From assembly GCF_017876575.1 (NCBI RefSeq), contig NZ_JAGIOE010000002.1, positions 1 to 64,000 on the forward strand: a stretch of DNA of 64,000 bases, read 5' to 3'. The notes beneath the pieces were generated by a model, which was not told the DNA's origin, did no database searches, and saw nothing but the letters and a program-made list of their open reading frames with translations. Made by a program: the position numbers and the translations under genes. Numbering within the stretch: position 1 is the stretch's first letter; every line of letters begins with the position of its first letter. Of the stretch, positions 2,869 through 26,989 are shown one piece after another. This stretch comes from Paeniglutamicibacter psychrophenolicus. Its GTDB lineage: Bacteria; Actinomycetota; Actinomycetes; Actinomycetales; Micrococcaceae.

Positions 2869-3147
2869 AATTAAGAGCGGACCAGACAATTTTGTGCCAA
2901 GACGAGGACTACAAGAAAGCCACCGCACGAATCGTTTCAGGCTTCCTAGCTAACATGCGCGAAACCCCCATCCAACGCTTCCCACCTGACAGCTAGCTAG
3001 AGGTTTCTTTCCTCTGGTTGTGTGATTCCACAGTGTGAAGCGCGGCAGTCTTCTAAGTCCTCCAGTGACCGGCGCCTTACGAACAGGAGAAGATAGTGAG
3101 GTAGATCACCGAGGCGTTGCCTCAGACGACACGAAGGACTTCCGGAG

Positions 3148-4353: not shown

Positions 4354-4357
4354 ACAG

Positions 4358-5722
4358 ATGGATATTGCCGCAACGCCGGGGCAAACCACCGCCGCCCCCG
4401 AGTCTGAGCCGGGCGTCACCAAACAACAGAAACGTCTTCTGCGGGGGGCGGCAGTAGGACAGTTCGTCGAATGGTACGACTTCCTCGTCTATGCCTCATT
4501 GGCTCCGGTCCTGGCCGCAAATTTCTTCCCGGCCACCAATTCCACCGCAGCTGTATTGAGCATTTTTGCTGTGTACGGAGCCGGGTTCCTCATGCGCCCA
4601 GTGGGAGGCATCGTGTGCGGAGTATTGGGTGACCGCTTGGGGCGCCGAAACATTCTTTCGGGAACCATCCTCCTTATGGGTGGGGCAACATTGATTTGCG
4701 GCCTACTGCCGACATATGCCTCCATTGGCCTTGCGGCTCCCGCCCTGTTGCTTCTCTGCCGATTGACTCAGGGATTTGCAGCTGGAGGCGAAGCGTCCAG
4801 CATGGGTCCCCTTGTCATTGAGTCCGCACCTCCGTCTAAACGAGGTATGTGGATCGGCGTCGCGTTTGCAGCAAGCTTCCTGCCGTCAGCCTTCGCAGGC
4901 TTCTTTATCCTTGGCCTTAATGGGGTTTTCGGCGTCGAAGCTTACAACGCCGGAATATGGCGAGTTCCGTTCCTTCTCGGCGGTGTCTTGGCTGTCATCG
5001 GACTTATAATCCGTCTAAAGGTGGAGGAGTCGGATGAGTTCCGGATCCTCGCTGAAGAGGGAGCGCTCTCTGAAAAACCCATCAGGGAGGCAACAACCAC
5101 CCATAGGAAAGCCATAGTGTACGTCTGCCTTGTCATCAGCGTTCTGGCGGTAAGTGCCTACACCGTACACAGCTATATGTTCACGTTCCTCGTCACTACA
5201 ATCAAAATGGCGACCATTCCAGCCATGTTGAGCACATCCATATCAGTGCTCGGTGTTGTTTTCCTCCTTCCGCTATGCGGCAAACTGGCCGACAAATACG
5301 GGCGCCGCCCGCTCATGGGCATCGGGACAATATACTTGGCTGTTGCGGCCTTGCCCGCTTATCTCCTGTGTACTACGGGGACATTCCTAGGGGCCCTGGC
5401 AGCGCAACTCTTCCTGGCCGTCGGGATCTCTATCTTCGGCGGAGGCGGTTATGTCGCCCTATACGAGCTTTTCCCCACCAGTGTGCGGTCGACCGGCATC
5501 GGACTCTCCTACAATCTCGGATACGCGATCTTTGGTGGCACCATGCCGTTCATCAGTCAGCTACTAGTAGAAAGTACGGGCTCGCCATTGTCCCCAGCTT
5601 TTTATCTCATCGCCGTCTGCCTGGCAGCCATAGTCGTTGTCAAGAAAATCCCGGAAACGGCAGGTAATGACTTGAACAACTCAGCATTTTCAATCCCGCA
5701 GGAGCGGACCAATGGACACTGA
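4358..5722 (+). CDS. MFS transporter of the metabolite:H+ symporter (MHS) type
   Basis: A 454-residue protein with about twelve hydrophobic segments. GQFVEWYDFLVYASLAPVLA opens the first membrane segment and is typical of the MHS family (proline/betaine, alpha-ketoglutarate and shikimate transporters). The loop motif GDRLGRRN lies near residue 92 and a second-half counterpart, ADKYGRRPLMG, near residue 315. These proteins import organic acids with protons. The gene lies 4 bp after the CoA-transferase and overlaps the enoyl-CoA hydratase by 11 bp, so it probably imports the acid that the CoA-transferase activates. The substrate is not determinable from sequence. Confidence 0.88.
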   Translation: MDIAATPGQTTAAPESEPGVTKQQKRLLRGAAVGQFVEWYDFLVYASLAPVLAANFFPATNSTAAVLSIFAVYGAGFLMRPVGGIVCGVLGDRLGRRNILSGTILLMGGATLICGLLPTYASIGLAAPALLLLCRLTQGFAAGGEASSMGPLVIESAPPSKRGMWIGVAFAASFLPSAFAGFFILGLNGVFGVEAYNAGIWRVPFLLGGVLAVIGLIIRLKVEESDEFRILAEEGALSEKPIREATTTHRKAIVYVCLVISVLAVSAYTVHSYMFTFLVTTIKMATIPAMLSTSISVLGVVFLLPLCGKLADKYGRRPLMGIGTIYLAVAALPAYLLCTTGTFLGALAAQLFLAVGISIFGGGGYVALYELFPTSVRSTGIGLSYNLGYAIFGGTMPFISQLLVESTGSPLSPAFYLIAVCLAAIVVVKKIPETAGNDLNNSAFSIPQERTNGH

Positions 5723-11778: not shown

Positions 11779-12078
11779 ATGAATGATTTCTAGTCCGACG
11801 TGAGCACAGAACAGGCCTTCGGCCATCGTTCCCGGAGATCTGCGTGGCTTCAACTCCGACTGTTCCCTGGGCGTCTCTGCATCTCGAAGTTGTTCGAAAG
11901 TCATGCTCGCACATGCGGCACACCCGGAAACTCATCGCATAAGCCGATCCCCCACCGCGACACCCGATGTCCAAAAATTTGACAGTTAAATACGTTGAAA
12001 ATTCAAGGAAGTCATATTCGCGTATACCCAGCCCGCATTAATGCCCGGTGAAGGTAACCTAAACGCTACACTTGAGGC
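11779..12078 (+). other. intergenic, no gene recognised
   Basis: Three hundred bases without a supportable coding frame. The last 80 bases before the resolvase gene are A/T-rich and would hold its promoter and any res site. I could not define binding sites by eye. Confidence 0.5.
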
Positions 12079-12651
12079 ATGTCGCCGCATCTGGTCGGGT
12101 ACGCCCGCGTCTCCACCAACCAACAAGACCTCGCCTCCCAGCAGGCAGGATTGAAATCCCTCGGCGTGCCCGAGGATTTGGTCTACGTCGACCACGGGCT
12201 CACCGGCCGGAACCGCGAACGCCCCGGACTGAACCAGGCTCTGGCCGCCTGCCGGGCCGGGGACACCCTGGTGGTCACCAAGCTCGACCGTCTCGCCCGC
12301 TCCCTGCCCGACGCCCGCGACATCGTCGAGGACCTCACCAAGCGCAACATCAAGCTGAGCCTCGGCGGCAACGTTCACGACCCCACCGACCCGGTCGGCC
12401 GGCTGCTGTTCAACGTACTGGCCATGGTGGCGGAGTTCGAGTCCGACCTCATCCGCGCCCGCACCCGCGAAGGCATGCAGATCGCCAAAGCCAAGGGCCG
12501 GCTCCGCGGCAAGCAACCCAAGCTCTCCCCCGCCCAGGAAAAACACCTCGTGGCCCTCCACCACGGCGGCAAGCACACCAGCGCCGAAATCGCCGAACTC
12601 TTCGGGGTCGCCCGCAGCACGGTGTACCGAATTGTTAATCGCACTTTGTAA
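12079..12651 (+). CDS. serine recombinase (Tn3-resolvase/invertase type)
   Basis: A 190-residue small serine recombinase. GYARVSTNQQDLASQQAGL gives the catalytic serine at residue 12, and VTKLDRLARSLPD and EFESDLIRARTREGM are the other active-site segments. The C-terminal helix-turn-helix is HTSAEIAELFGVARSTVYRI. The length is standard, so the gene looks intact. It resolves cointegrates or inverts DNA. It borders the accessory island with the zinc-ribbon and helicase genes and may be the marker of the mobile element that brought them, but no transposase lies beside it. Confidence 0.93.
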   Translation: MSPHLVGYARVSTNQQDLASQQAGLKSLGVPEDLVYVDHGLTGRNRERPGLNQALAACRAGDTLVVTKLDRLARSLPDARDIVEDLTKRNIKLSLGGNVHDPTDPVGRLLFNVLAMVAEFESDLIRARTREGMQIAKAKGRLRGKQPKLSPAQEKHLVALHHGGKHTSAEIAELFGVARSTVYRIVNRTL

Positions 12652-13000
12652 AGTGCTACCTCTATGATCGACGCGGAAGTCTAAACCTTGCAGGAACTTC
12701 GAGGGTAATCGATAATTCGCGTTTAGTTTTTGTCGCAGACTGGAGCGTAGAGAAAATAACACGGTTTGCTGTCGCAATCGGGTTAAGTCTCCCGACCTCA
12801 AATTTGCGCAGGCAGCCTGGGAGTGTTCCTCACCTCTATGGTTGGAAAATGACGGCGTCACATCACCGCCGAAATTTCCGGCTTCTCAGCATCACGCGCG
12901 ACTCGGTGAACAGAATCAATTATCAGGCCCCGGCCGCAATACGAGCCTTGGACCTCTTGCAATAAATATGTATTCATTCGGATAGGAAGCAACGACAATA
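12652..13000 (+). other. intergenic, A/T-rich, no gene recognised
   Basis: About 350 bases separating the resolvase from the zinc-ribbon gene. No coding frame is supportable. The composition changes here to visibly more A/T, which continues into the next gene. Confidence 0.5.
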
Positions 13001-14983
13001 ATGCCGCGGAAGACTGATCGCATCCAGCTCTCTCTTATCAGATGCACAAGATGCGGGACTATGCGGGTCCTGACGCAACCGTGCGCAGACTGTGGCGCCA
13101 AACCCCGTCCGAATGAGGTAAATCCAGCGTTGGCCGCTCGGCGACAGGTTCGCCTCCAAATAGATGCCTCCGTTGCATCCATTGAGGGGGCGGCACCAAC
13201 GCTGTTAAGGCACTCTGAGCTCCTGCAGCAAGGCCCTGCGTTGGTTCTTAACCAGCTCAGTGAGGCACTGGAATCATGGGATCACAGTATCCAACAAGTT
13301 ATAGTTCCCCGACCGAAAACAAAGGAGATCGATCAGCTAGCCCGAGTGATAATCCGGTTACGAGCACTCAAGAAGCAATTAAACGAACTGTCCCCCCTGC
13401 GCCCCTACGTTTCTCAACTAAGGTTATGGAGAAAAATAGCTGCGGATCTAAACGCGATATCAGACTCAACGTTAGAAGCGCTGACCAGCCCGGACATCGC
13501 CCATATCCAGGAAACGCTTAAAACAAATCAACAACGGCTGGATCGTCTAACCGAGCAACTGGGCACAGCCACCTTGTATCAACAGGCAGCAGAGCTACTC
13601 GAGCGAGGCGACAACTGGGAGAACGGCTTCGATAATCTGCTTGCGGCGCTCCAACTCCGATATCCCTCAAAAGGACTCGTCGAGCTCGACGAGATCGGTG
13701 CTCTCGCAGCAAGCCAGGTGACAAAAGCACATATCGCCCCCGGACAGGGGATTCAATACCTGTCACTCACCGTCCTAGCAGACGTCCACCTTGATCCGGA
13801 GAACTTCCGCCGAACTATCAAGGGCACGACCCAACTGTTCGGCCAGAACGCTCACCGTCTCTCTCTGCTGATGACAAACGGTCAAGCGGTAGCGGATCTG
13901 GCTCGTGCTAAGGAGAACATCCTAGATGTCCACCTAAATCTTGAGGCCGTGCTCGGACGTCCACTAACCGATGAACAGGCCCTCCGACAGCTCATGAAGC
14001 TGTATCACACGCTGTACGAAGAGGGAGGGCTTCCGATTTTTGCCTGGCTTCTGTTGGTGTCAGGACAAAAGACAGCAGCCTATTCTTCCCTGCTCCTCAA
14101 AGGGGCAACAACACTCGGTGATTCGATCGTCAAACACGAAGAGTTGTCAAAGCTCTTCAGCGGGGTCAATAAGGACCTGCGAACGGCAGCAAGCCACGGG
14201 CTCAGCTATATATTGACAGAAGAAGGCATTGCATTTAGGAACCTAAAGACGGCGAACGGCATCCTTCCATTAGCAGACTTTGCAGACACTCTCTTTGCGT
14301 TCATCGAAAGCCTGTTGGCCGTCATGTGGGCCCTTGACAACCAACTCGAACTCAGCGGCGCAACTGACCACAGGCAGGATGCATTCGTCATGGGACTTAA
14401 TCCAACAAAATTGGCCCAAGTCGCGCTGAGCCCACTTGGTGTAGAGATACTTGATACGGAGATCTCCGAAAACACATGGATCCTAGATGTCGGAACAACA
14501 CCGCAGCCATTAACTATTCTGGCTTGTTCCGTGGCCCTAAATGCTCTGCCCGGTGTTGAGAACATACTGGTGAGGAGGTATCTCCAGAATGCACAACCCA
14601 GAGAAGTGCTTGTCCCTGCACTGGCAGCGACCGAGAGAATTACTAGACATGGGCAGGGCTCGGCGGAAGACAAATATCTAGATGTCCTACGTTTCCTCAA
14701 CGAGATCAGAATCGACGGCAAATCAGCGCTAACGATGAGCCACTTGAAGTTCGTCGCCGGGCGCATCGGACTTGGGCTTGATGGAGACCGTTCGATCGGA
14801 AGGATCTCCGATCTCAGATGGCTGCTATCTCTATCGGCCTCTAAGGTTGATCAAGAATTCGAACCAATAATCCGTAAGCTCATGCGAGTAATGCGCATTC
14901 CAGCTGAGCAACTCAATCCTAAATTGAAGACAATTCTGGGACTTTGGGCCGATCTACCGCCCGTCCAATACGACCTGGTTTAG
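13001..14983 (+). CDS. unknown 660-residue protein: N-terminal zinc ribbon, HEPN-like RxxxxH motif
   Basis: I do not recognise a named family. The N-terminus holds a four-cysteine zinc ribbon (C15, C18, C28, C31, within CTRCG and CADCG). Residues 45-220 are helical with coiled-coil character. The C-terminal half is helical and contains KDLRTAASHGLSYIL, with arginine 394 and histidine 399. This R-x4-H spacing followed by a short strand resembles the (R)NAxxH core of HEPN nuclease domains in abortive-infection proteins. The usual polar residue after the arginine is threonine here. The codon use is more A/T-rich than its neighbours, a sign of recent transfer. It converges on the helicase-nuclease gene, with 106 bp between stops. 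A defence role is an inference. Confidence 0.6.
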   Translation: MPRKTDRIQLSLIRCTRCGTMRVLTQPCADCGAKPRPNEVNPALAARRQVRLQIDASVASIEGAAPTLLRHSELLQQGPALVLNQLSEALESWDHSIQQVIVPRPKTKEIDQLARVIIRLRALKKQLNELSPLRPYVSQLRLWRKIAADLNAISDSTLEALTSPDIAHIQETLKTNQQRLDRLTEQLGTATLYQQAAELLERGDNWENGFDNLLAALQLRYPSKGLVELDEIGALAASQVTKAHIAPGQGIQYLSLTVLADVHLDPENFRRTIKGTTQLFGQNAHRLSLLMTNGQAVADLARAKENILDVHLNLEAVLGRPLTDEQALRQLMKLYHTLYEEGGLPIFAWLLLVSGQKTAAYSSLLLKGATTLGDSIVKHEELSKLFSGVNKDLRTAASHGLSYILTEEGIAFRNLKTANGILPLADFADTLFAFIESLLAVMWALDNQLELSGATDHRQDAFVMGLNPTKLAQVALSPLGVEILDTEISENTWILDVGTTPQPLTILACSVALNALPGVENILVRRYLQNAQPREVLVPALAATERITRHGQGSAEDKYLDVLRFLNEIRIDGKSALTMSHLKFVAGRIGLGLDGDRSIGRISDLRWLLSLSASKVDQEFEPIIRKLMRVMRIPAEQLNPKLKTILGLWADLPPVQYDLV

Positions 14984-15089: not shown

Positions 15090-17669
15090 CTAGCCATTCG
15101 CGGCAACTGGGTCATGCGTGACTCGCTCATGAATTTGCGAGGGGAGGACACCCCGAGCGTTGAATGTTTCGGCAACGTGCTGGCGTAGTTCCTGCAAGGT
15201 TCGATTCGTACTCCTGGCGAGCAGTTCCTCCCATGCCGAGCTGACATCGGACGCGACCTCGACCATGGTCGATGGCGTGATCAGGTGGACATGAGACTCC
15301 GCGCCTTTGATTCCGTCATCGTGAATGCTCGGCTTGGGGGAGATGACAATCGTTGCGCTGTCGGCAGGTGCGGCATCCACACCTCTGTCGGCCGCAAGCA
15401 GTCTCAGCTGATCGTTGGCTTGTCGGATATCCTTATGCGGGACGACTCCTGTCGGCTCGTGGTCGCTCTTCGCTTCCAGAGCAAGCCAAAGTTCGTTCCC
15501 CCAGCACCAAGTCGAATCGCATCGCCCCGTGCCCGGCGGCTTAGATGCTGTCGCACCGACAAGTTTCCCAAGTTCTGTCAACGCCGGCTCGTATTTGGCG
15601 GGATCTCGTTGGTCGAGCCCGGAGCGCATCTCAGCAATACGCCGGTGGATTGTTCCTTGATTGACTCCAGCGTCCAACATGGTGGCTACCGTGCTGACGG
15701 CGTGTGCATCTACGGCACATAGGGCGGAACGCTGCATTGCGGGGAACGGCGCCATCTGTCGAACCCACGATCCGAGACCCATGACCTGCTCTGCAAGTCG
15801 GATCAGCCGCTGCGCCGCGGCGCGACCAGCATCATCACCCGCTTGCTCTGCGGCTATGTCTGCCCATGCCGCTTCGAGATAGATCCAGAATGCGCGGTAA
15901 CCGGCGGTGTCTGCGCCTCCCGTGCCCGCGAGGCGTGCAACCTCATGAGCATGTCGCGACGCGTCAGCCCAGTTTCCGATAGTGGCCGCAGCCCATGCCT
16001 GAATCTCTTCATCGACGCATGAAGACAAAGCGGTTGTGCCCTCCGGCATTCGCTGCGGCATCTCTCGGCGATAATCGGTGAGAGCTGGTTCTGCTTGAGT
16101 GCGCCAGCTCTCGTCTGTGTGCTGGTGGAGGAAGGCCCGAACGTTGCCGAGTACGTTGATGTCCGAGGTGCTCTGGGAGTTCTCCCGTCCGAATCGGATT
16201 TCTGCTTGTAGCTCTGAATCGAGAGCAGCTACTACCTCGGGACGGGTGAGGTACCTGGAAAGGTCTGAGCTGAGAACAAGCACGACTGCCGTATCTCCCG
16301 GGCCTCGCGTGCACCGTCCTGCCCCCTGGATGACCCGGGTTCGTACGCGCGCCGCCAAAGCGGCGCCGGCTCGTGCGCGTGACTGCAGGAACCGTTCTTG
16401 AAGGTTGTCTTGATCTGGGACTCCATCCAGCGCGACAAGACGGCACGCATCTCCCGGAAGGTCGAGCCCATCATATCGTGCAGCTAAGCCACACACTCCG
16501 TGCTCAAGCATTGCGAAAGCGTCAATGCCGGAGGCAACCTGATCGACGCCCCAAACCGGCCACCCCGGTTGAGCCAGGGCGGTGGCACCGGCCATCGCGG
16601 TCTCCGTGCGGGGTGACAGAACGAGCGCTTTTCCTGCCTCGGCAACGATCGAACGGCTCAGCTCAGCCGCGTCCCCTCCCTCTACGAACTCCGGGAAGAC
16701 GAAGAACCGTCGGCCGTAACGCGGTGCTGTGCTCTCGTCAGGCTGCTCTAGACGGAGAATCCCTGCACGACCGAAGGCCCGTTCGAGTTCCCCTCCCTCT
16801 CCCAATGTGGCCGACAGGTAGACCCGTTGTCGGGCCCCCGTGAAGAGGCGGTTCTGATGGGTCGGAGGAAGATAGGGGCGAACCAAAATCCCCGAGTATG
16901 CGACATACACCAAGCACGATGCCAGGCCAGTCCGAATCATCGAGTATCTGTAGCTATGAGGGGACGAGAAGGAGCTCAGTTTGGTATCGAGTTCGCTGAC
17001 CATCCCTGGTTGCCGAAGGGGTACAACCATCCGTACATCGGCGCCGATCCCGGGATCCGGTTGGTCACTTCGGAGACGGTCAAGAAAGACGCCGTCGAGT
17101 GCCGGAGCGATAGCGTCAAGGGCGGTGATGTACTCAGTGGGAGACTTCCAACGGCCCAGATCCACACTGTATGCCTCGCCGACGTATTGCTCTCCTGCAT
17201 GTGCGTCATCGAACAGTATCAAATCGGCTTCGGCTAGGTGAGGATTGCTATTGAAAATGCTGCTGTAGGTTGTGACAGCAATCGCATCGGCGGCTTCATA
17301 CGCTGCATGCGCGGAAGCCGGCCAGTCAGTGTGCCGGCCAATCAAAACAGCCACCTCGATACCCTCGCGGAAGGCAGCAGCGGCGACCTGACGTGCCAGC
17401 TGTTGTGTGGGGCACGCATAGATCACACGCGAGCGACGACTACGTCGTGTCCACTCCGCAATGAGTAGACCAGTCAGGGTCTTGCCGGTCCCCGTCGGTA
17501 GCTCTAGAGCAACATCAGCCTTGTTCGAATGAGAGGTGAAGGTCTTAAGCATCTCCGACTGGTGGGCCCACAGGCCGGGAACTGCACCTGGACGCCGCGG
17601 CAAGTCCCTGTACAGTTCGCCAGGAGATATGTAACTCGCCCCATCTGACTTCGTGCGAATGAACGCCAT
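15090..17669 (-). CDS. superfamily 2 DEAD/DEAH-like helicase with PD-(D/E)XK-like C-terminus
   Basis: An 859-residue protein started by AGGAGG 5 bp before ATG. The SF2 helicase motifs are LELPTGTGKTLTG (Walker A, near 60), LILFDDAHAGEQ (motif II as DDAH, near 150), VYLSATLGEGGE (motif III) and VIQGAGRCTRGPGD (motif VI, near 450). After a helical region the C-terminus holds a candidate nuclease site: an Asp near 718 in RCDSTWCWG, then LWLALEAKSDH with E-x-K near 732-734, a PD-(D/E)XK-like spacing. A nucleic-acid motor joined to a nuclease suggests a stand-alone defence protein. Hachiman-like or restriction helicases are alternatives. It is a single gene, convergent with the zinc-ribbon/HEPN-like gene. 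Confidence 0.75.
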   Translation of the reverse strand: MAFIRTKSDGASYISPGELYRDLPRRPGAVPGLWAHQSEMLKTFTSHSNKADVALELPTGTGKTLTGLLIAEWTRRSRRSRVIYACPTQQLARQVAAAAFREGIEVAVLIGRHTDWPASAHAAYEAADAIAVTTYSSIFNSNPHLAEADLILFDDAHAGEQYVGEAYSVDLGRWKSPTEYITALDAIAPALDGVFLDRLRSDQPDPGIGADVRMVVPLRQPGMVSELDTKLSSFSSPHSYRYSMIRTGLASCLVYVAYSGILVRPYLPPTHQNRLFTGARQRVYLSATLGEGGELERAFGRAGILRLEQPDESTAPRYGRRFFVFPEFVEGGDAAELSRSIVAEAGKALVLSPRTETAMAGATALAQPGWPVWGVDQVASGIDAFAMLEHGVCGLAARYDGLDLPGDACRLVALDGVPDQDNLQERFLQSRARAGAALAARVRTRVIQGAGRCTRGPGDTAVVLVLSSDLSRYLTRPEVVAALDSELQAEIRFGRENSQSTSDINVLGNVRAFLHQHTDESWRTQAEPALTDYRREMPQRMPEGTTALSSCVDEEIQAWAAATIGNWADASRHAHEVARLAGTGGADTAGYRAFWIYLEAAWADIAAEQAGDDAGRAAAQRLIRLAEQVMGLGSWVRQMAPFPAMQRSALCAVDAHAVSTVATMLDAGVNQGTIHRRIAEMRSGLDQRDPAKYEPALTELGKLVGATASKPPGTGRCDSTWCWGNELWLALEAKSDHEPTGVVPHKDIRQANDQLRLLAADRGVDAAPADSATIVISPKPSIHDDGIKGAESHVHLITPSTMVEVASDVSSAWEELLARSTNRTLQELRQHVAETFNARGVLPSQIHERVTHDPVAANG

Positions 17670-18036: not shown

Positions 18037-18591
18037 CTAGGAACGAACGCGCCCGACCCAGGCCCGGTGCTTTGGGGCGACGTGGAGGCCGAGTCGGGTT
18101 CGCCCCCGCAGGACCCCGACGCGAGTTCGCCCCTCCACCACTTGCAGACCTTCAAGCTGGGGGTTGACCAGGGCTTGGTCGATGAGGATCGGCCAACTCT
18201 TCCAGGTCCCGTGCAAGTCCCACATCTCACGGACACCAACGTGGCAACCCTGACTGCGGATGTTGACCCAATGCTCGGGTTCCTTGGCGTAGTAGTCGAT
18301 GAGGTCGCTCTCCGAGGCACCCGTGGGCATCGTGATTAGCGCTTCCAAGGGGACGATCTCGACGCGCCAGGCAATGGTCGTCAGGTCAATATGTCCGTAG
18401 TCGTCGAGGAACGCGTGGTGATCAGCATGGTCATAGAGCCACTGCCCAGCGACGTCATCGGGCCAGTGGTGCAAACCTACGGTGTCCCTGTAGCCGAGGA
18501 AGGTGGCTAGACCTGCAGAACTGTCTCGGGCGGTCCGAGCGGCCTCAATGAGGTCGGGGAGATAGATCGGACGATGCCTCTTCTCAGGCAT
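18037..18591 (-). CDS. unknown 184-residue protein, last gene of the restriction-modification-like operon
   Basis: No family is recognised. The protein is rich in aromatic and acidic residues (LHHWPDDVAGQWLYDHADHH near residue 40, YYAKEPEHWVNI near 105). It has no signal peptide, membrane segment or obvious nuclease motif, although the His/Asp-rich stretch could bind metal. The basic tail RTRVGVLRGRTRLGL may touch nucleic acid. The start overlaps the end of the helicase gene by 8 bp, so it is co-translated and likely functions with it. It may be a specificity, inhibitor or accessory subunit. Confidence 0.7.
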   Translation of the reverse strand: MPEKRHRPIYLPDLIEAARTARDSSAGLATFLGYRDTVGLHHWPDDVAGQWLYDHADHHAFLDDYGHIDLTTIAWRVEIVPLEALITMPTGASESDLIDYYAKEPEHWVNIRSQGCHVGVREMWDLHGTWKSWPILIDQALVNPQLEGLQVVEGRTRVGVLRGRTRLGLHVAPKHRAWVGRVRS

Positions 18592-21082
18592 GGCTTTGCT
18601 CGACAGTCACGGTGTCCCACAGGCCGATCTGCTCGTGCTGGTGACGGCGTTCGCGCTCCTCGTCGGTGAGGGCGTAGTCGAGACTGGAGGACTCGAAGCG
18701 CTTGAACTGGTAGATGGCGTGGTTCATGTGCTGGGCATTGAACAGGCCGAGGTTGTTGAGCGTCTTGAAATCGGACACTGACAGGCCGGTGACGCGTTCG
18801 AACAGCTCCGAGTCGAGCGACTCGATAACGTGTTTAAGGGATTCCTCGCGGTAGTCGGTGGTGTACATAAACACTGGGATCTTGGCCAGGAACTTCTGGA
18901 GCTTCTCGCGGATCTCGGCTCGTCTCTTGGCGGTCTCGGACTGCTGGTTCTTCTGGTCGGGGGTAAGTTTGCCGCCCTGGTCGCGTTTGGCTTTCTTGAG
19001 GTCCTTGGTGTTGGTGATGACCTGCTGGGCGTTGTCGACCAGCGCGCGGAAGTCCTCGACGTTCTCCAGAGCCTCCATCAGGGCCGGCTGGGCCAGGACT
19101 GCGGAGAGGGTGTGCTCGTTGACATCGACGAGCAAAGGGGAGTTCCAGCGACGAGCCAGCGCAGCAGCCCCGACTCCAGCGCTGGCCCAGTCCAGCACCG
19201 CGGTAACGTCGAGCTGGGTCATCGCTCCCCCAGTGAAACCGAATATCGGGAGGTAATTGATCAGCTCGCCGATAGCCTGCGACGGGGTGGTGTCGCCGGT
19301 GGTGGCGAGCTTGGAGCCGTACTCGGCGACCAACGACAGGGCGCGGTTGGGGTCGAACTCGAAGACGAAGCAGACCGGCTTACGCAAGTCGAAGTTGCCC
19401 TCGGCGTCGCGGTAGGCCCACGGGGACTGGACGCGGAACGCGGCCTGGAAGTAAGACTCAGGGCTCTTCAGCGACCGGAGCATGAAGATCGCACCCCATT
19501 CGCGGACGGTGACGCCGGTCATCAGCTTGCCGACCGACAAGGTAATCGAGCCGACCGCGTCGCCCTTCTTGACGTCCTCGATGGCGCGCTCGACGGGCGG
19601 CAGGGCGGCTATGCCTTGGCCGGCCTTGTTGCCGGCGGCGACCACAATCTCGAACTGGGAGAAGAACGGGTGCTGCTCCAGCATCTCGGCCATCGCGAAG
19701 CAGGCGGCGACGTTGTTCATGTACCAAACCGAGTGCTTGACGGCAGATTTGAACCGGACGGCCTCGTAGGGGAACGGCGGCTTGTCCTGGGTGAGCACCT
19801 GGAGCTTCATCTGGTCCGAGAGCTTGCCGCGGAACATCTCCAGGAACTCGGCCACCTCGTCGGGGCGCTCGAACTCGAAGCCGTCGTTGGTCTTGGTGGC
19901 CTTGAAGAACTCGTTGAGGCTGAAGCCGTTGAACTCACCGTCCTCGGCGTAGCTCTCGGCGTTCTTGCCCATGTCGTAGGAGTACATCTGCATCTGGGGC
20001 AGCGCGATGTATGGGTTGGGACCCTTGGCGTTGTCCCATTCGAACTTCTCGCGCTGCTCGTCGACGTAGGTCCAGTTGAAGATCGCGTCCTCGGTGAACT
20101 CGCCGTCGGTGATCGCGCGGAACGGGGTGCCCGACAAGTACAGGTAGTGGCTAGCCTTGACCGCCAGTTCCTCGGCAAGTCCCTCGACTGTCACCTGCTC
20201 GTCGGGCTCCTCCAGTTCGGCCTCGGTCTTGTCAGCGGGGTCGTAGAGGGCCCGTGCTGAGTCACGCCAGGCTCCGAAGTGGTACTCGTCAAGGACGATG
20301 GCGTCCCAGTCGATCAGGTGGATGGACTCGTTCTTGGCCTTGATGTTGCCGTCGGCATCGCGGCCCCCGAGGTCCTGCAAGGAAGCAAACCAAACCACCG
20401 GGCCGTTGTAGTCGGCTGCGTCGTCGCGTTCTACTTCGCTGGCCTCCTTGTCGATGTAGCGCCAGCCGTCGAAGTCGACGTGGGAGACCAGGTCGTCGTG
20501 CCAGGCGGTGGCCACCGCGGGCTTGAAAGTCAGCACGAGTATTCGCTGCCAGTCCATCTCCTTGGCGAGCTGGTAGGTGGAGAAGGTCTTGCCGAAACGC
20601 ATCTTTGCGTTCCACAGGAATTTCGGCGCCTTGTTGCCTGCGTGACTGCGGAAGTAGGCCGCAGTGGTCTCGACGGCGGCGCGTTGCTCAGGGCGCATAT
20701 CGAAGGACTGGGTCCGCTTGGGCTGGTAGGCGATGCCGGAGCGCACTGTCTGGATTGCGGCCTTGACCTCGTCAAGGGTCGCCTCGAACCACTCACCGCC
20801 GGTGCGGTTGATACCGGCCGCGACCAGGGCGGCGTGCACGTCGTGGTCAGAGAAGGCCTCGCCGTTGACATTGGTCGCGGGTTCGTCCAGGAGGATGGTC
20901 ACGCCTTTGAGGCCGGGGTAGGCGGTGTTGAGCTGCTGCTTGATGCGAGCCCGGGCCGTGGCTTTGGTTGTCTGCCCTACCTTCAGCAGACCGGCGCCGA
21001 TTACCAGTCTGGAGCCTTCGGTGCGTTCCCAGGGCTCGGTATCCTTGCCGACGACGGTGTAGACGTAAATACGCTTGGTCAC
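18584..21082 (-). CDS. GIY-YIG/T5orf172-type domain fused to a restriction-type SF2 helicase
   Basis: An 832-residue two-part protein. Residues 5-105 match the T5orf172/GIY-YIG pattern: IYVYTVV, then LLKVGQTTKATARARI, then GEAFSDHDVH with a glutamate at 75 and histidines at 80 and 83, then GEWFE at 97-100. The rest is a restriction-subunit-like helicase: LWNAKMRFGKTFSTYQLAK at 157-173 (Walker A with RFGKT), AIVLDEYHFG at 261-270 (motif II DEYH), YLYLSGTPFRAI (motif III) and YFQAAFRVQSPWAY (motif VI). It would translocate on DNA and cut. The start overlaps the methylase stop (ATGA), and the gene is third of four in one operon. I infer it is the restriction subunit paired with the two methylases. 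Confidence 0.82.
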   Translation of the reverse strand: MTKRIYVYTVVGKDTEPWERTEGSRLVIGAGLLKVGQTTKATARARIKQQLNTAYPGLKGVTILLDEPATNVNGEAFSDHDVHAALVAAGINRTGGEWFEATLDEVKAAIQTVRSGIAYQPKRTQSFDMRPEQRAAVETTAAYFRSHAGNKAPKFLWNAKMRFGKTFSTYQLAKEMDWQRILVLTFKPAVATAWHDDLVSHVDFDGWRYIDKEASEVERDDAADYNGPVVWFASLQDLGGRDADGNIKAKNESIHLIDWDAIVLDEYHFGAWRDSARALYDPADKTEAELEEPDEQVTVEGLAEELAVKASHYLYLSGTPFRAITDGEFTEDAIFNWTYVDEQREKFEWDNAKGPNPYIALPQMQMYSYDMGKNAESYAEDGEFNGFSLNEFFKATKTNDGFEFERPDEVAEFLEMFRGKLSDQMKLQVLTQDKPPFPYEAVRFKSAVKHSVWYMNNVAACFAMAEMLEQHPFFSQFEIVVAAGNKAGQGIAALPPVERAIEDVKKGDAVGSITLSVGKLMTGVTVREWGAIFMLRSLKSPESYFQAAFRVQSPWAYRDAEGNFDLRKPVCFVFEFDPNRALSLVAEYGSKLATTGDTTPSQAIGELINYLPIFGFTGGAMTQLDVTAVLDWASAGVGAAALARRWNSPLLVDVNEHTLSAVLAQPALMEALENVEDFRALVDNAQQVITNTKDLKKAKRDQGGKLTPDQKNQQSETAKRRAEIREKLQKFLAKIPVFMYTTDYREESLKHVIESLDSELFERVTGLSVSDFKTLNNLGLFNAQHMNHAIYQFKRFESSSLDYALTDEERERRHQHEQIGLWDTVTVEQSHA

Positions 21083-22698
21083 TTGTCGGTCTCCGGGGCT
21101 TCGGCTCCTGCACCAGGTCGGTACTTCGAACCGCCGGACAGGTGACTGGCCGGGATGGGCGAGTCGAGAGAGAGGTTCACCGAACGCGGCTTGATGGTCA
21201 AGTTGATGTAGTCGCGCTCTTCCGGGGTGAGCTGGAAGTGGTCATACAGCTCCTCGTCTGTCCAGCTACGAGTCATATCGAGCATGGGAGCAAACCGGAA
21301 CCGATCCGGCGTGATGTCCTGCGTGACCTTTCGTTGCAGCACTAGGAAGCGGACGAACTTGGTGGCGAGGTAGTTGGCGTAGTTCTCCGTCTCGGCGGCG
21401 GAGTGGAAGACGCCTGCGACGAAGTATGTCTGGGTACACGCAGAACCGGGGGCGAGTGCGATCGGCGCACCGGTGACCACGTCAATGATATTGCCCTCGC
21501 CGTCGAGCGGGGTGTCACCGCTGCTTGCCTTCGGGAGCAATACTTTCCACCGGTCTACCCAGGCATGGTTTCGTTCAAGCTGGTCGTCCCGGACGTAACC
21601 GACGCGCGTCCCGTAGATGAGGGGGATGGAGTTGGGGAAGGGTGATTCCAAGGATCCGGCGAAGTTGGTCCTCAACCCGAATGGGACCTGGGGGCCGAAG
21701 GTTTCTTCGACCGATGGGTAGCCGAGCTGTGCGACCCGCTCGATGATCACTGCGGCGCGGTTATCACGGACAAGGACGCCTTCACCCTTGCGCAAGTCCC
21801 TTCGCACGGTTGATCGGATAGTTCCGTCGATCCTCGTGGAGAACTCGGTATCGTCATGGTGCTCCCGGTCCCAGAGGAAATAGCTCACACCCCCGCGGAT
21901 CTTCACTCCGGGAAAACAGTCAAAGATCTTGGGGTTGTCGACAAGCTTGGCCAGGCGGCGGTCTGCGATCATCCGCGTGCGGAAGTCGTCTAGGCCTAGA
22001 CCGCCAGCGAACCAGCGCGACGGTGTGATCATCAGGACGTAACGGGGGTCGAGGGCGATGGCCTGGTCCACGAACTTCTGGTAGATCGGCATGGTTCGGG
22101 TGTTGCCGTCAGAGTCAATCTGGTAGGGCGGGTTACCGACAATGACGTCGAACTTCATGTTGGCCATCTCCTGCGTGGGGTAGGTGCCGTGGATAAACGA
22201 ATAGGCGTAGTTTTCGCGACCCTCGCCGCGTTCGAGTTCCTCGGGAGCGTTGCACAGACTGCAACGGCCGTTGGCCTGGAAGTCGTGCGCTGCGGGGATG
22301 AACGGGAGATTGCCCTGCGGCTCGGCGAACCGGACGATGCTGTGCGGCCCGGAGGCGTTCGCGGAGCAATAGAGGCTGCGACGCGAGATGATCCCTGTCA
22401 TCTCGGTAATCGAGGCACCGTGGAGCATGCTGCGCAGGATATGCTCGCGACGTACAGCGAAGTCTGGCTCCCAGTCGGCCAGGCCTTCGAACAACCTGGT
22501 GGCGATCTCGCGGAGAAATACACCGGACTTGCTGAACGGATCGAGCCACACGAAGTCGGGCCTACGCCACACATCGTCGGGGAGCAGGTCAAGCATCGCT
22601 CGAGCGAGCTTGGGCGGGGTGGGCACCTCGTCGTTGGAGAGCTGTGCAAGGCAGTCGAGAATATCGGGAACATGCTGCCCAAAACGCGTCGTGGTCAT
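21079..22698 (-). CDS. Eco57I-type adenine-specific DNA methyltransferase
   Basis: A 539-residue N6-adenine methylase. The SAM site (motif I) reads VWLDPFSKSGVFLREI near residues 50-65, and the catalytic motif IV is VIVGNPPYQID with NPPY near 189. Between them a C-x2-C pair (CSLCNAPEELERG) suggests a small zinc-binding insert. ITPSRWFAGGLGLDDFR downstream is typical of the Eco57I family. The C-terminal 250 residues probably hold target recognition. The gene overlaps both neighbours by four bases. It should protect host DNA from the downstream helicase-nuclease. Confidence 0.87.
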   Translation of the reverse strand: MTTTRFGQHVPDILDCLAQLSNDEVPTPPKLARAMLDLLPDDVWRRPDFVWLDPFSKSGVFLREIATRLFEGLADWEPDFAVRREHILRSMLHGASITEMTGIISRRSLYCSANASGPHSIVRFAEPQGNLPFIPAAHDFQANGRCSLCNAPEELERGEGRENYAYSFIHGTYPTQEMANMKFDVIVGNPPYQIDSDGNTRTMPIYQKFVDQAIALDPRYVLMITPSRWFAGGLGLDDFRTRMIADRRLAKLVDNPKIFDCFPGVKIRGGVSYFLWDREHHDDTEFSTRIDGTIRSTVRRDLRKGEGVLVRDNRAAVIIERVAQLGYPSVEETFGPQVPFGLRTNFAGSLESPFPNSIPLIYGTRVGYVRDDQLERNHAWVDRWKVLLPKASSGDTPLDGEGNIIDVVTGAPIALAPGSACTQTYFVAGVFHSAAETENYANYLATKFVRFLVLQRKVTQDITPDRFRFAPMLDMTRSWTDEELYDHFQLTPEERDYINLTIKPRSVNLSLDSPIPASHLSGGSKYRPGAGAEAPETDK

Positions 22699-23330
22699 GA
22701 TCGGGCCTTCTTGGTGGCCATCACGGGCTCGGGGTTGTCGGCCAGCAGGGAATAGTGGATCGGCACGTCGTCGGCCTTCGGCACCGAGAACAGGTCAAGC
22801 TGATCGGCCTCGCCTGCCATCGACCACTCACGCTGGAAGGTTCCGTTACGGCTGGCGCGGTAGTCGACCCACTCAATGGAGTGCAGGTCGGTCAGCGTGT
22901 TGGCTAGGACAATATTTGTTTCCAAGATAGCTTCGACTGCGCTGGCGAAGCCGGGGGTCGGCACCTTGGTGTTGAGGTCGTTGTCCAGGTGGGACTGCAT
23001 CACGTGTTTCATCCGCTCCTTTGACTCGTCGACGTTCTCGGAGTCGATGTCTACGGCATAGATCGAGGCAAGCCCACGCAGCAGCCTGTGCTCGTACAAA
23101 ACGGTGGAGCGGTAATGGTCAGCAGTCACGAAGGCGAGCTTCCGGCGGAGGATCTCCTCGAGGAAGTTGCCCGAGCCTGCTGCCGGCTCGAAGAACTTGC
23201 GGTCGGTGTTGCTGGGGTCCTCCACGGTGGGAAACATGTCGGGAACCAAATCAAGCATGGCCGTCACCTCGCGGGTGTGAGTGTAGACCTCAGCGAGGTC
23301 ACGCACCCGCTGGCGCGTCTTAATCTGCAT
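22695..23330 (-). CDS. short methyltransferase-like protein with SAM motif and clamp-binding-like QLDLF
   Basis: A 211-residue protein, first in the operon, with GAGGAG six bases before ATG. Motif I is FFEPAAGSGNFLEEILRR near residues 47-63. ASIYAVDIDSENVDESKERM fits motif II. No NPPY catalytic motif is visible, so it cannot methylate by itself in the usual way. Near the C-terminus ADQLDLFSV matches the bacterial sliding-clamp-binding consensus QLxLF. The stop overlaps the next start (ATGA). It may be a degenerate partner that binds SAM or DNA and works with the complete methylase. Confidence 0.8.
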   Translation of the reverse strand: MQIKTRQRVRDLAEVYTHTREVTAMLDLVPDMFPTVEDPSNTDRKFFEPAAGSGNFLEEILRRKLAFVTADHYRSTVLYEHRLLRGLASIYAVDIDSENVDESKERMKHVMQSHLDNDLNTKVPTPGFASAVEAILETNIVLANTLTDLHSIEWVDYRASRNGTFQREWSMAGEADQLDLFSVPKADDVPIHYSLLADNPEPVMATKKARS

Positions 23331-23506
23331 GTTTCTCCTCAGGTCACAGGGGGTTCACTAGTCCATTGTGTCAGCCAAGTACGATGCACCGGATCACCGA
23401 CGCAGAGCCACCAGGCCTGTGCGTAAGCCGACCGGCATACGGGTTCCGGTCAGCCTGGTTCAAGCAGGTTTTGGCGCCTATGGAATCCATCTGACAAAGT
23501 GCTCAT

Positions 23507-24870: not shown

Positions 24871-25311
24871 GAAGACACAGTATATCAATGGGTGTCGCTT
24901 TCAAACACAAGATGCTAGAATTCTTGAAGATAAGAACAGCGGAGCGAACAGTGAACTTCTCCACGCCTTGCAGAGAGGGGACCATGGACTTCAAAGGGGC
25001 CGACCTCTGTCATCCAGTGGATATCGGTAAATTACCGATAGGCTCCCGGAGCACAGGCCAATCATGCGCACCGCGAAGCAAGGCCCATCGTCTCTTTTCA
25101 CTAGCATGATGGGCTATTTGAGCTGAGGGAATTGCCTTTCTTCCCAGCCACGCGGCCAAATCACCCAGATTGGTGAAGCAAGAGTCGATTCCGTCCGAAG
25201 GATCGAGTCGCGGGTTAAAGAAATAACCCCGGTCGCTTCATGGCTCTAGGCCAGAGAGGCGAATCCGGGGACTTCCTCACCAGTATATCCGAGAAAGCAG
25301 GAAAAGCCACG
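24871..25311 (+). other. intergenic region with a 9-bp inverted repeat
   Basis: This region separates the XRE gene from the divergent Abi-like gene. It holds a perfect inverted repeat, TATCGGTAA-A-TTACCGATA, at 25022-25040, a candidate operator. Short open frames here have poor composition and are not reported. Confidence 0.5.
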
Positions 25312-26058
25312 ATGAGCGCTGTCTCCCACGTGTGGTCAAACGGGGCTCATAGCCGCGCACTAGACAAGGCGATTACCCCGATGCGGATGTCGACGTATCT
25401 GGTCAACGCCAGCCATGACCCGGTCTATGCCCGTAGCCTCTATGTTTGGGACCGCGATGTCTCATCGGCGCTGCTTGCCGATATCGCGATCCTGGAAGTG
25501 GCACTGCGCAATGCGCTGAACGACCAGCTCACCACCGCCTATGGCCCGCAATGGTTCCACCTGGACATCGGGTTGGACGGACGGTCGCGCGATGACCTGG
25601 CCCGAGCCTGGAAGGACCTGCCCCAAGGCAAAAAGACGCCCGGGCATCTGGTCTCGCGGCTCATGTTCGGATTCTGGCGCGACCTGCTCAGCGCCGGCGG
25701 ATACGTGGGACGCGAACCCCAGCGTTTCCCCACCAACTACGAGACCCTGTGGCGCACGGTGCTGCACAAGGCATTTCCAGGAGGCAAGGCACTGGCCGCG
25801 ACCCAGGGCGCCCAATTCACCAGGACGTGGACCCTGGAGACCGTGACGATTGTCCACGCGGTACGCAACCGCGCCGCCCACCATGAACCATTCATCTCTG
25901 GTTTCCCACTGCCGGGGCAACGCACCCGGCTGACCGCTCAGCAGGCCCATGAGGCTTCGCAGAAGCTGGCGGGACTTTTAGATCGCGACCTGGCCTCTTG
26001 GATAGGTACGAATTCTTCGGTACCCGCCCTGCTCGCGGCCAAACCGCCTAACAGCTAA
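25312..26058 (+). CDS. Abi-family (HEPN-type) abortive-infection-like protein
   Basis: A 248-residue protein resembling the AbiD/AbiF-like Abi family. RMSTYLVNASHDPVYARSLY near residue 25 and VWDRDVSSALLADIAILEVA near 46 fit the N-terminal region. VHAVRNRAAHHEPF near 185 supplies the conserved R-N-x3-H HEPN ribonuclease core. The ATG at 25312 has AGGA upstream; the frame is open a further 24 codons to 25240 with no good site. Abi proteins stop phage spread by cutting RNA in infected cells. An HNH gene follows after 37 bp, so the two are probably one unit. Confidence 0.78.
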   Translation: MSAVSHVWSNGAHSRALDKAITPMRMSTYLVNASHDPVYARSLYVWDRDVSSALLADIAILEVALRNALNDQLTTAYGPQWFHLDIGLDGRSRDDLARAWKDLPQGKKTPGHLVSRLMFGFWRDLLSAGGYVGREPQRFPTNYETLWRTVLHKAFPGGKALAATQGAQFTRTWTLETVTIVHAVRNRAAHHEPFISGFPLPGQRTRLTAQQAHEASQKLAGLLDRDLASWIGTNSSVPALLAAKPPNS

Positions 26059-26095
26059 CCACCGACCCCAATAACAACATTAGGAGCAGCTTGTT

Positions 26096-26989
26096 ATGGC
26101 AAGCGGACCAAAGAACTACACGGTAGGCACAGAAAAAGCTCTTTTCCGCCTTGCCAAAGGGACTTGCTACTTTCCAGACTGTCTAAAGCCGATCATAGAA
26201 ACGGTTGATGGTGAACCTGTAGTAGCTGTGGAAACCGCTCATGTCAGTGGAGCCAAACCAGGATCTGCGCGATATGTAGAGTCAATGACAGATAAGCAGC
26301 GGGCCGCATTCGACAACCTCATTTTGCTCTGCGTTCCGCATCACAAGATTGTTGATCGTTTACGACCGAATGACTACCCCATCGAGACTCTAATGAACTG
26401 GAAGCGGGCCAATGAGCCGGATGAAGGAATCGAGATTTTAAGAGCTCTCACAGAGTCAAACCTGGAAGAATCGCTAGCGAAGGTAATGAAGGACGCCGGT
26501 CCTTATCGTGAGGTCAATTTGAACGTTACCGCAGGCGTCCTGCTCGCAGGTAATGAACTACTCACCATCCCATTCGAGTCCCTATCAACTTTTCTTGCTC
26601 ATAACCCTCATTTCAGGCAGTATCCTCTGGTCGTTTGCGTGGACATTCGGAACACCGGCACTGCAGCGGTGTCACTTGCTGGGGTCACTATCCACTATGC
26701 GATTGGCCCATTGGATGCACAAGGATCCCCGGCAAAATTCACATACATGGGTAGGAACGACTTTTACCAGATCAACCCCAAACTTCCACACCGTTTACTG
26801 GATGGAGCATCCGTGCAGTGGCTAATGAAATATGAATCACTACAAGAAGTTGGTGAGGACATGGCGAAAAGTACCGTAAACATCACCATTTCCGCTATTT
26901 ACGCAACCGTGCGTTTGGGTTCAGGCGAGAGTATGGATTCACCCCAAATTCCTTGGTCCCAAACAAAACTAGAGAACTCATCTATCTAG
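26096..26989 (+). CDS. HNH-type endonuclease-like protein with unknown C-terminal domain
   Basis: A 297-residue protein. The N-terminal 110 residues hold an HNH-like fold: CYFPDC near 24, ETAHVSGAKPGSARY near 55 (histidine of the first strand), and FDNLILLCVPHHKIVD near 80-95, the N-x-L-L-C-x2-H-H-K-x-V-D ending. The C-terminal 150 residues are beta-rich and look like a sensor or binding domain; they are not recognised. AGGAG lies 11 bases before ATG. The gene lies 37 bp after the Abi gene and is more A/T-rich than the plasmid backbone. A defence nuclease is the likely role. Confidence 0.72.
   Translation: MASGPKNYTVGTEKALFRLAKGTCYFPDCLKPIIETVDGEPVVAVETAHVSGAKPGSARYVESMTDKQRAAFDNLILLCVPHHKIVDRLRPNDYPIETLMNWKRANEPDEGIEILRALTESNLEESLAKVMKDAGPYREVNLNVTAGVLLAGNELLTIPFESLSTFLAHNPHFRQYPLVVCVDIRNTGTAAVSLAGVTIHYAIGPLDAQGSPAKFTYMGRNDFYQINPKLPHRLLDGASVQWLMKYESLQEVGEDMAKSTVNITISAIYATVRLGSGESMDSPQIPWSQTKLENSSI

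What the first reader, a model, noticed from the sequence alone, without database searches (positions are those of the whole stretch)
18037..23330. Four-gene operon: two methylase-like proteins, T5orf172/GIY-YIG-helicase, small unknown
All genes overlap by 4-8 bases, so they are made in fixed ratio. The restriction part is a helicase with an N-terminal GIY-YIG-like domain instead of the usual PD-(D/E)XK or PLD nuclease. Modification seems split into a complete Eco57I-type methylase and a short SAM-motif protein without NPPY. The last gene has no known family. I cannot place this in types I-IV as usually described.
Basis: partly seen in the sequence, partly recalled or inferred. Interest (0 to 1): 0.8.

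Follow-up and report, generated by a model that had tools for sequence, protein, structure and literature searches.

The report
DrdVI-type restriction system, divided methylase
A plasmid carries a known but barely studied kind of DNA-defence system whose DNA-marking enzyme appears to be divided between two proteins, one likely to hold the methyl donor and the other to do the chemistry, and this may change how such systems are thought to tell self from foreign DNA.

Summary
The operon is real (minus strand, 23330 to 18037), but it is a three-gene system plus a passenger. Genes A (211 aa), B (539 aa) and C (832 aa) match, in the same order, the three genes of DrdVI from Deinococcus wulumuqiensis, a published m6A 'Type IIG' system (GCAGCC). 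Of 80 related genome loci, 74 show C, and in all 74 the order is A-B-C. Gene D is not part of it: it was found in 0 of the 80 loci, and the 92%-identical block shared with a congeneric genome stops at C's stop codon. In 118 paired sets A keeps the SAM-site acid (118) and the first motif I glycine (117), while B has lysine for that glycine and no acid (118), yet carries the NPPY/F catalytic motif (118). Two natural viral chains join A directly to B's catalytic half. So A and B are probably one obligate two-chain m6A methyltransferase, and B's N-terminal half is a disabled copy of A. That half is usually found with the GIY-YIG translocase C and is fused to it in two other lineages. No structure could be predicted; nothing was tested at the bench.

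The parts
22695..23330 (-). Gene A (M1-like, 211 aa): SAM-binding half of an m6A methyltransferase; EPAAGSGNF (motif I) and the motif II acid D94, no NPPY
   Evidence: first motif I glycine 117/118, second 118/118, D/E at the motif II position 118/118 in paired homologues; a [NDS]PP[YFW] string in 1 of 80 A frames; homologous to the first methylase gene of pDrdVI
21079..22698 (-). Gene B (M2-like, 539 aa): residues about 8-112 = BN, degenerate copy of A (DPFSKSG, no motif II acid); about 113-178 = H138/C146/C149/H170 region; about 179-300 = catalytic half with NPPYQ; about 301-505 = presumed TRD. The limits are my own divisions
18584..21082 (-). Gene C (R, 832 aa): N-terminal T5orf172/GIY-YIG nuclease (about 1-115) + SF2 helicase/translocase (GKT 164-166, DEYH 265-268, SGT 317-319, QAAFR 546-550) + C-terminal region
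   Evidence: Y6, K34, G36, R46, E97 and the scored helicase residues in 103 of 103 C homologues; PADLOC Type IIG profile PDLC03626 in 47 of 47
18037..18591 (-). Gene D (184 aa): passenger of an actinobacterial/phage family (PHROG 8867, unknown function); overlaps the end of C by 8 bases, not part of the conserved system
18575..23430 (-). Unit of conservation: block 92.2% identical to a second genome of the same genus (L040), holding A-B-C and 100 bases upstream of A, ending 9 bases past the C stop codon
   Evidence: blastn of L040 against the window
23334..23340 (-). Purine-rich Shine-Dalgarno-like stretch (GAGGAGA) before the ATG of gene A
   Evidence: sequence; upstream 20 bases

Best explanation
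A-B-C is a DrdVI-type (Type IIG-like) restriction-modification system carried on a plasmid-like contig. A and B together are one m6A methyltransferase: A provides the intact SAM pocket (motifs X to III), and B provides the NPPYQ catalytic motif and the target recognition domain (TRD). B's own N-terminal half (BN) is a degenerate duplicate of A that cannot hold SAM in the usual way and that mostly travels with the nuclease-translocase C, so its likeliest job is to couple recognition to C. C is an ATP-driven translocase with a GIY-YIG nuclease in front; at unmodified sites it is expected to move along DNA and cut, probably after two oppositely oriented sites communicate, as in Type ISP and as proposed for MmeI-like enzymes. 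Shown here: the genes, their conservation, the complementary motif loss, the module rearrangements, D's absence from the relatives examined. Inferred: the joint active site, the role of BN, translocation, the two-site rule, and the modification itself (known only for DrdVI). My likelihoods: DrdVI-kind R-M about 0.93; A+B one obligate enzyme about 0.75; A physically replacing BN on the catalytic half about 0.4; translocation with two-site cleavage about 0.6.
For: pDrdVI carries A, B and C homologues in the same order (31, 37 and 45% identity), and no other methylase among the features listed (PLSDB's gene table is incomplete). PMC6430315 assigns M1-2.DrdVI to GCAGCC, 6mA, IIG, with MTase genes cloned in E. 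coli. GCAGCC has one A and its complement none, so two M genes for one methylated base fit one joint enzyme. C was found in 74 of 80 fetched loci and order and strand are A-B-C in all 74. Complementary loss in 118 pairs: A acid 118, first glycine 117; B lysine 118, acid 0, NPP[Y/F] 118. BN and A are homologous (hhalign 98.5%, E 2.3e-15). Chains with A joined directly to the catalytic half and no BN: L173 and L176 (Pfam N6_Mtase on the A half, Eco57I on the B half) and, further split, L192; L182 has the same halves as adjacent genes. No C was found in their held flanks. BN is fused to C in two other lineages. Catalytic residues of C 103/103.
Against: Covariation does not show A contacting B's catalytic half: 0.33 strong pairs per 1000, against a maximum of 0.33 in 10 shuffled pairings, while A-BN gives 6.2. 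BN and the catalytic half, in one chain, also give only 0.92, so the test has little power, and shared history can explain the A-BN signal; but it equally allows an A-BN dimer rather than replacement of BN. BN keeps much of its fold signature (DEVxTPP, DPxxKSGVFLREI), so unusual SAM binding by B is not excluded. BN is not strictly tied to C: 8 BN-BC frames lie in loci where no C was found, several of them cut by contig ends. The BN-less viral cases are few (five), and L176 has only 0.3 kb held upstream. No solved structure matches C's helicase credibly by sequence. Identity to DrdVI is only 31-45%, and activity of this copy is unknown.
Confidence: 0.75

Rival explanations
1. B is a self-sufficient methylase with an unusual SAM site (DPxxKSG), and A is a second, independent or regulatory SAM-binding protein.
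For: B has both an N-terminal half with motif X (TPP) and a motif I-like loop, and the catalytic half. The lysine is invariant (118/118), so the loop is under selection. A covaries with BN, not with the catalytic half.
Against: B lacks both the first motif I glycine and the motif II acid in all 118, while 23 BN-like domains in distant viral chains (several on near-identical contigs) keep a glycine there. A is present in 80 of 80 loci picked by B. A lacks NPPY, so it is not expected to methylate alone. A fused to the catalytic half without BN exists.
Confidence: 0.15
2. An A-BN heterodimer is the stable unit: A docks on BN as a pseudo-dimer (like a catalytic and a degenerate partner) and its SAM reaches the B active site across the interface without displacing BN.
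For: A-BN and A-zinc-region covariation 6.2 and 4.7 per 1000, against maxima of 1.06 and 0.35 in 10 within-cluster shuffles.
Against: A, BN and the C domains share one history while the TRD does not, so co-inheritance alone could produce this pattern. The A-catalytic-half fusions show that BN is absent from some chains.
Confidence: 0.25
3. A four-gene system in which D is an essential effector or regulator.
For: D overlaps C by 8 bases. One other genome (G068) has D about 2.5 kb from a related A | C-BN | BC system (L049).
Against: D was found in none of the 80 genome loci (held stretches) and not in the 92%-identical block of the relative. In the five plasmid records opened, its homologues (Streptomyces, Rhodococcus, Pseudarthrobacter) lie beside genes that are not annotated as R-M. 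In two searches of 198 relatives D matched 7 and C 13 genomes, sharing only G000 and G068.
Confidence: 0.04
4. Modification without cleavage (BREX-like): C uses translocation to block DNA and the GIY-YIG domain is not the effector.
For: The B profile's best solved match, in the BN region, is an adenine methylase, with BrxX among the weaker ones (8c45, E 0.004; 8c45 0.032 and BrxX 0.24).
Against: The GIY-YIG residues Y6, K34, G36, R46 and E97 are invariant in 103 of 103 C homologues. No BREX gene was matched in the ten operon and flanking proteins scanned, beyond weak PglX hits on B (E 0.035 and 0.082).
Confidence: 0.06

Closest known systems
DrdVI (M1.DrdVI, M2.DrdVI, DrdVI) of Deinococcus wulumuqiensis 479
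   Same: Same three genes, order and domain make-up; published as m6A, 'IIG' (PMC6430315, whole text), R described as fused translocase and REase with a GIY-YIG relative (PMC4996451, section 17); homology
   Different: 31-45% identity; recognition site here unknown; a passenger gene D follows here and no D homologue was found in the pDrdVI stretch searched; the division of SAM site and catalytic motif is not described in the parts of the two papers that I read
Type ISP enzymes (LlaGI, LlaBIII)
   Same: Nuclease, SF2 translocase, methylase and TRD for one asymmetric site; the fused lineage C-BN-BC has the same domain order (PMC3874165 passages; PMC4666363 abstract)
   Different: ISP is one chain with an Mrr-type nuclease and its own methyltransferase; here GIY-YIG and a separate SAM half. 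The C profiles found no Type ISP enzyme among solved structures
OspHL35III-type Type IIG-like systems
   Same: Separate chains with a GIY-YIG nuclease and a translocase (PMC4752239, section 10 and the S4 figure legend)
   Different: There the methylase is described as MmeI-like, with translocase and nuclease as separate proteins; here nuclease and translocase are fused and the methylase is divided
Two-chain cytosine methylases M.AquI and M.EcoHK31I
   Same: Conserved motifs distributed over two polypeptides (PMC3404938, passages)
   Different: Those are m5C enzymes with only the last motifs on the smaller chain; here the m6A SAM half is separate and its partner keeps a disabled duplicate of it

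Membership tests
DrdVI-type system | M1 + M2 + R genes, same order and strand | tested here: met
   (window queries against pDrdVI, L021); order in 74 of 74 genome loci in which C was found, of 80
DrdVI-type system | R is a translocase with a GIY-YIG nuclease domain | tested here: met
   T5orf172 E 9.6e-6 in the window's C; helicase PHROG E 1e-10; residues 103/103
DrdVI-type system | m6A modification of a short asymmetric site | not testable with these tools
   no methylation data for this genome; known only for DrdVI
Type IIG-like (as in PMC4752239) | one TRD for both methylation and restriction | tested here: inconclusive
   a single presumed TRD, in B; its use by C is inferred
Type IIG-like (as in PMC4752239) | nuclease and m6A methylase typically on one polypeptide | tested here: not met
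   three chains in the window; the source calls this typical, not required; PADLOC's fused IIG profile PDLC03626 matches C at 150-801 and B at 1008-1357 of 1359
Type ISP | single chain with an Mrr-type nuclease and a complete methylase | tested here: not met
   GIY-YIG instead of Mrr, separate chains; intact SAM half on another chain
Type ISP | ATP-driven translocation and cleavage between head-to-head sites | not testable with these tools
   needs biochemistry
Type I | HsdS specificity subunit with two TRDs and an HsdR PD-(D/E)XK nuclease | tested here: not met
   no such family hits in A-D
Type III | Mod beta-class methylase with Res PD-(D/E)XK helicase | tested here: not met
   B is Eco57I by Pfam (gamma class recalled); C has a GIY-YIG-type domain; only the helicase part is ResIII-like, in 39 of 47 homologues
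BREX | PglX/BrxX with PglZ, BrxC and other BREX genes | tested here: not met
   no BREX gene hits among ten operon and flanking proteins beyond weak PglX on B

The most novel reading that the evidence does not exclude
A and BN compete for the same catalytic half of B, making a molecular switch: with A bound the complex methylates (self-marking mode); with BN folded onto the catalytic half the complex recognises but cannot methylate, and hands the site to the translocase-nuclease C (restriction mode). The ratio of A to B and C would then set modification against restriction. This would explain why BN is kept in nearly all loci that have C with its SAM loop altered (lysine in most, threonine in five C-BN chains), is fused to C in two lineages, and is missing in five virus-borne methylases with no C found nearby.
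Probability: 0.15. Interest if true: 0.85.

Novelty: new member of a known kind. Interest (0 to 1): 0.52.

Why it matters
The system is common: one capped scan confirmed 575 relatives of B, in many phyla, and A matched 14 of 296 genomes of the phylum. Yet a search of the held library found three papers naming DrdVI. Records label B an Eco57I methylase-domain protein and A variously 'hypothetical', 'N-6 DNA methylase' or 'type III subunit M'. If A and B are one enzyme, such annotations and methylome assignments need pairing. If BN is a coupling or switching device, the family offers a direct test of an old question: how a system that marks only one strand avoids cutting its own freshly replicated DNA, and how one recognition domain serves both marking and cutting. 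The virus-borne chains of A plus catalytic half would be candidate protective methylases.

Tried and rejected
Four-gene reading: rejected, D is a passenger. B as a complete methylase: rejected as the leading reading on motif loss. First coevolution run: its strongest A-B pairs fell largely on residues 4-8 of B and on columns absent from the window, so it was redone with stricter columns and a shuffled-pairing control. The A-BN signal cannot be separated from co-inheritance: pairwise distances of A, BN, zinc region and the C domains correlate at 0.63-0.88, the catalytic part at 0.37-0.47 with these, and the TRD at 0.22-0.30 with these and 0.39 with the catalytic part (103 triples). A clean cassette boundary at NPPY was not confirmed: of 8 pairs printed (six from the top's list, two picked freely), 7 show identity declining through residues about 200-280 rather than breaking at NPPY, and L161/L163 stays higher. 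Promoter scan: 0 found, 1.2 expected; terminators 2, 4.0 expected. Rfam and tRNA: none in the window. ParB-like reading of D's GLQVVEGRTRVGVLRGR motif: recalled resemblance only; no Pfam family and no credible solved match. Transfer of the GCAGCC specificity to this copy: not attempted. A Bibersteinia-like A-B fusion (PMC4996451) was looked for; no A-BN-BC chain appeared among the fetched loci. A close-relative scan for the A-catalytic-half chain L176 returned only itself.
Full report
OBSERVATION. The four frames are present as described: A 23330-22695, B 22698-21079, C 21082-18584, D 18591-18037, all on the minus strand with overlaps of 4, 4 and 8 bases. They are not chance: the longest stop-free frame in 200 shuffles of the region was 394 codons, against 832 for C and 539 for B. 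Pfam calls Eco57I in B (E 1.5e-25) and T5orf172 in C (E 9.6e-6); A has only a sub-threshold MmeI_Mtase hit and D nothing. PHROGs calls a DNA helicase in C (E 1e-10). PADLOC's Type IIG profile PDLC03626 (1359 positions) matches C at 150-801 and B at 1008-1357, so fused relatives were already known to that library. A purine-rich stretch (GAGGAGA) precedes A's start.

WHERE IT LIES. The window is the first 64 kb of an 83,774-base contig of a two-contig, 4.9 Mb genome. Window 40-64 kb is 91.9% identical, over 95% of its length, to an Arthrobacter plasmid with TraM-like and relaxase genes (NZ_MH067975), so the contig is probably a conjugative plasmid of an Arthrobacter-like host (inference; no overlap of the contig ends was seen).

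THE UNIT IS THREE GENES. A second genome of the same genus (L040, from G002) shares a block of 92.2% identity from window 18575 to 23430: A, B, C and 100 bases upstream, ending just past C's stop codon. In 80 genome loci fetched with the B alignment (the best 80 of 575 confirmed relatives, itself a capped list), A and B are found in 80 of 80 and C in 74 of 80. Order and strand are A-B-C in all 74, though not always tightly packed (gaps up to about 2.5 kb, as in L111, and C in two frames in L074 and L080). D is found in 0 of 80. Of the six without C, five contigs end within about 1 kb of B (lengths); the sixth, L093, has 3.3 kb without C. D's own family lies on Streptomyces, Rhodococcus and Pseudarthrobacter plasmids (25 records); in the five opened, the neighbours are not annotated as R-M genes. 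It matches PHROG 8867 of unknown function.

CLOSEST KNOWN SYSTEM. tblastn of C against 72,556 plasmids found 79 records, among them pDrdVI of Deinococcus wulumuqiensis NEB 479. There A (31%), B (37%) and C (45%) have homologues in the same order, and the features listed for the plasmid include no other methylase (that gene table is incomplete). [quoted passage not shown] coli. [quoted passage not shown] A search for DrdVI found three papers (the third, PMC10113651, was seen only in the listing), and M1.DrdVI/M2.DrdVI found one. The word combinations showed in their listings no study of how this methylase works. Of those papers I saw passages of PMC8432527, PMC8709438, PMC12707154, PMC4752239, PMC10853773, PMC4081073 and PMC3874165. 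The library is open-access only.

DIVISION OF LABOUR IN THE METHYLASE. In 118 paired A/B sets (117 loci and the window, after length and coverage filters) A has E48-P49 in 118, the first motif I glycine in 117, the second in 118, and a motif II acid (D 61, E 57) in 118. B has lysine in place of the first glycine in 118, no acid at the motif II position (A 70, G 36, S 9, P 3), and NPP[Y/F] in 118 (Y 117). Among the 80 A frames one has a [NDS]PP[YFW] string. Alignment of the B profile with a solved adenine methylase (8c45) shows the same two losses: LDPacGSG against LDPvtksG, and FGLDID against fgiait (a weak match, E 0.032). BN and A are homologous (hhalign probability 98.5%, E 2.3e-15). The lysine is not a rule of the wider superfamily: 23 BN-like domains in distant viral chains (BN score 22-61 bits, against at least 112 for the 129 lysine cases) keep a glycine there, 2 have alanine, and 5 were not scored by the pattern, one of them (L061) a lysine case in the alignment. 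Motif numbering follows recalled convention.

NATURAL FUSIONS. Two viral-contig proteins, L173 (529-codon frame) and L176 (521), run from A's full length straight into the FDVIIGNPPYQ of B's catalytic half with no BN; Pfam sees N6_Mtase on the first half and Eco57I on the second. L182 has the same two halves as adjacent genes, L192 has a further-split A-catalytic-half chain, and L185, whose contig has the same length as Tenacibaculum phage PTm1 (224,680 bases), has a catalytic-half gene and an A gene. In none of these five was C found in the held flanks (upstream 0.3-7.8 kb, downstream 1.9-8.0 kb). PHROG 11371 has the TRD region before the A half, a circularly permuted order. In other lineages the modules sit as A | C-BN | BC (L046-L049, L223, and L193 in the order A | BC | C-BN) or as A with a fused C-BN-BC. 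The region between C and BC in 15 fused chains, as one alignment, matches BN (98.1%, E 1.3e-13) and hardly A (14%); by eye it keeps the lysine in 14 of 15 (L027 lacks it). In the eight chains with C and a BN found by the BN model the position is K in 3 and T in 5. A tree of 57 C proteins groups the architectures (3 changes; shuffled mean 17.5, as low in 0 of 200), with long branches that make deep placements unsure. BN without C also occurs: 8 BN-BC frames are in loci where no C was found, several of them cut by contig ends.

WHAT THIS SUGGESTS. A plus the catalytic half of B equals one ordinary gamma-type m6A methylase (class recalled), cut between motifs III and IV; BN is a disabled duplicate that mostly goes with C. 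DrdVI supports a joint enzyme: GCAGCC carries a single adenine and its complement none, so two M genes serve one methylated base. Against the simplest version, A does not covary with the catalytic half (0.33 strong pairs per 1000; shuffled maximum 0.33) but does with BN (6.2; shuffled maximum 1.06) and the H/C-rich region (4.7; 0.35). BN and the catalytic half, on one chain, reach only 0.92, so the test has little power (effective number of sequences about 84). The same pattern would arise without contact because A, BN and all C domains share one history (Spearman 0.63-0.88) while the catalytic part (0.37-0.47) and the TRD (0.22-0.30) follow others. Pairs such as L145/L155 have 99% identical helicases and 26% identical TRDs. 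So whether A replaces BN or sits on it is open.

RESTRICTION. C has invariant Y6, K34, G36, R46 and E97 of the GIY-YIG-like domain and invariant GKT, D-E-x-H, SGT and Q546/R550 helicase residues in 103 of 103 homologues. T5orf172 is called in 39 of 47, MUG113 in 31, ResIII in 39. By analogy with Type ISP (PMC3874165 passages, PMC4666363 abstract) and the one-strand argument made in PMC3874165 for MmeI-like enzymes, the likely mode is ATP-driven translocation from an unmodified site and cleavage on meeting a second, oppositely oriented enzyme. This is inference; no solved translocase credibly matches C by sequence.

VERDICT. A new member of the DrdVI kind.

Noticed in passing
L175:5067-11206: A fused C-BN-BC system followed by two extra catalytic-half/TRD frames, one inverted; inverted repeats lie over the NPPY motif (33 nt at 97% between the two extra frames, 160 nt at 76% between the main and the inverted one), which looks like specificity switching by inversion.
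   Followed up: partly
window 15090-17669 (-): DEAD/DEAH helicase matching the PADLOC candidate defence family PDC-S28 (E 2e-90), next to the R-M operon.
   Followed up: no
window 25240-26989 (+): A weak, sub-threshold Abi_2-like protein and a protein of a PADLOC candidate family with HNH-labelled relatives (PDC-M68A, E 6e-25): perhaps a small defence island around the operon.
   Followed up: no
window 13001-14983 (+): 660-aa protein with no Pfam family above its cut-off and no PADLOC hit, between a resolvase gene and the defence genes.
   Followed up: no
window 21079-22698, B residues 138, 146, 149, 170: H138, C146, C149 and H170 of gene B are invariant in 118 of 118: a possible metal site between the degenerate SAM half and the catalytic half.
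   Followed up: partly
window 40000-64000: Conjugative-plasmid backbone 92% identical to Arthrobacter plasmid NZ_MH067975.
   Followed up: partly
L022 and its record NZ_CP015624: In a Corynebacterium crudilactis plasmid, mobile elements and aminoglycoside phosphotransferase genes lie between the A-B homologues (record 3012-5215) and the C homologue (12011-14569).
   Followed up: no
L197, L199-L203, L206: Virus contigs (some near-identical) with two to five related methylase frames in tandem plus a short BN- or A-like frame.
   Followed up: no
L049:5312-5902 (-): A homologue of passenger gene D lies about 2.5 kb from an A | C-BN | BC system in another genome of the family.
   Followed up: partly
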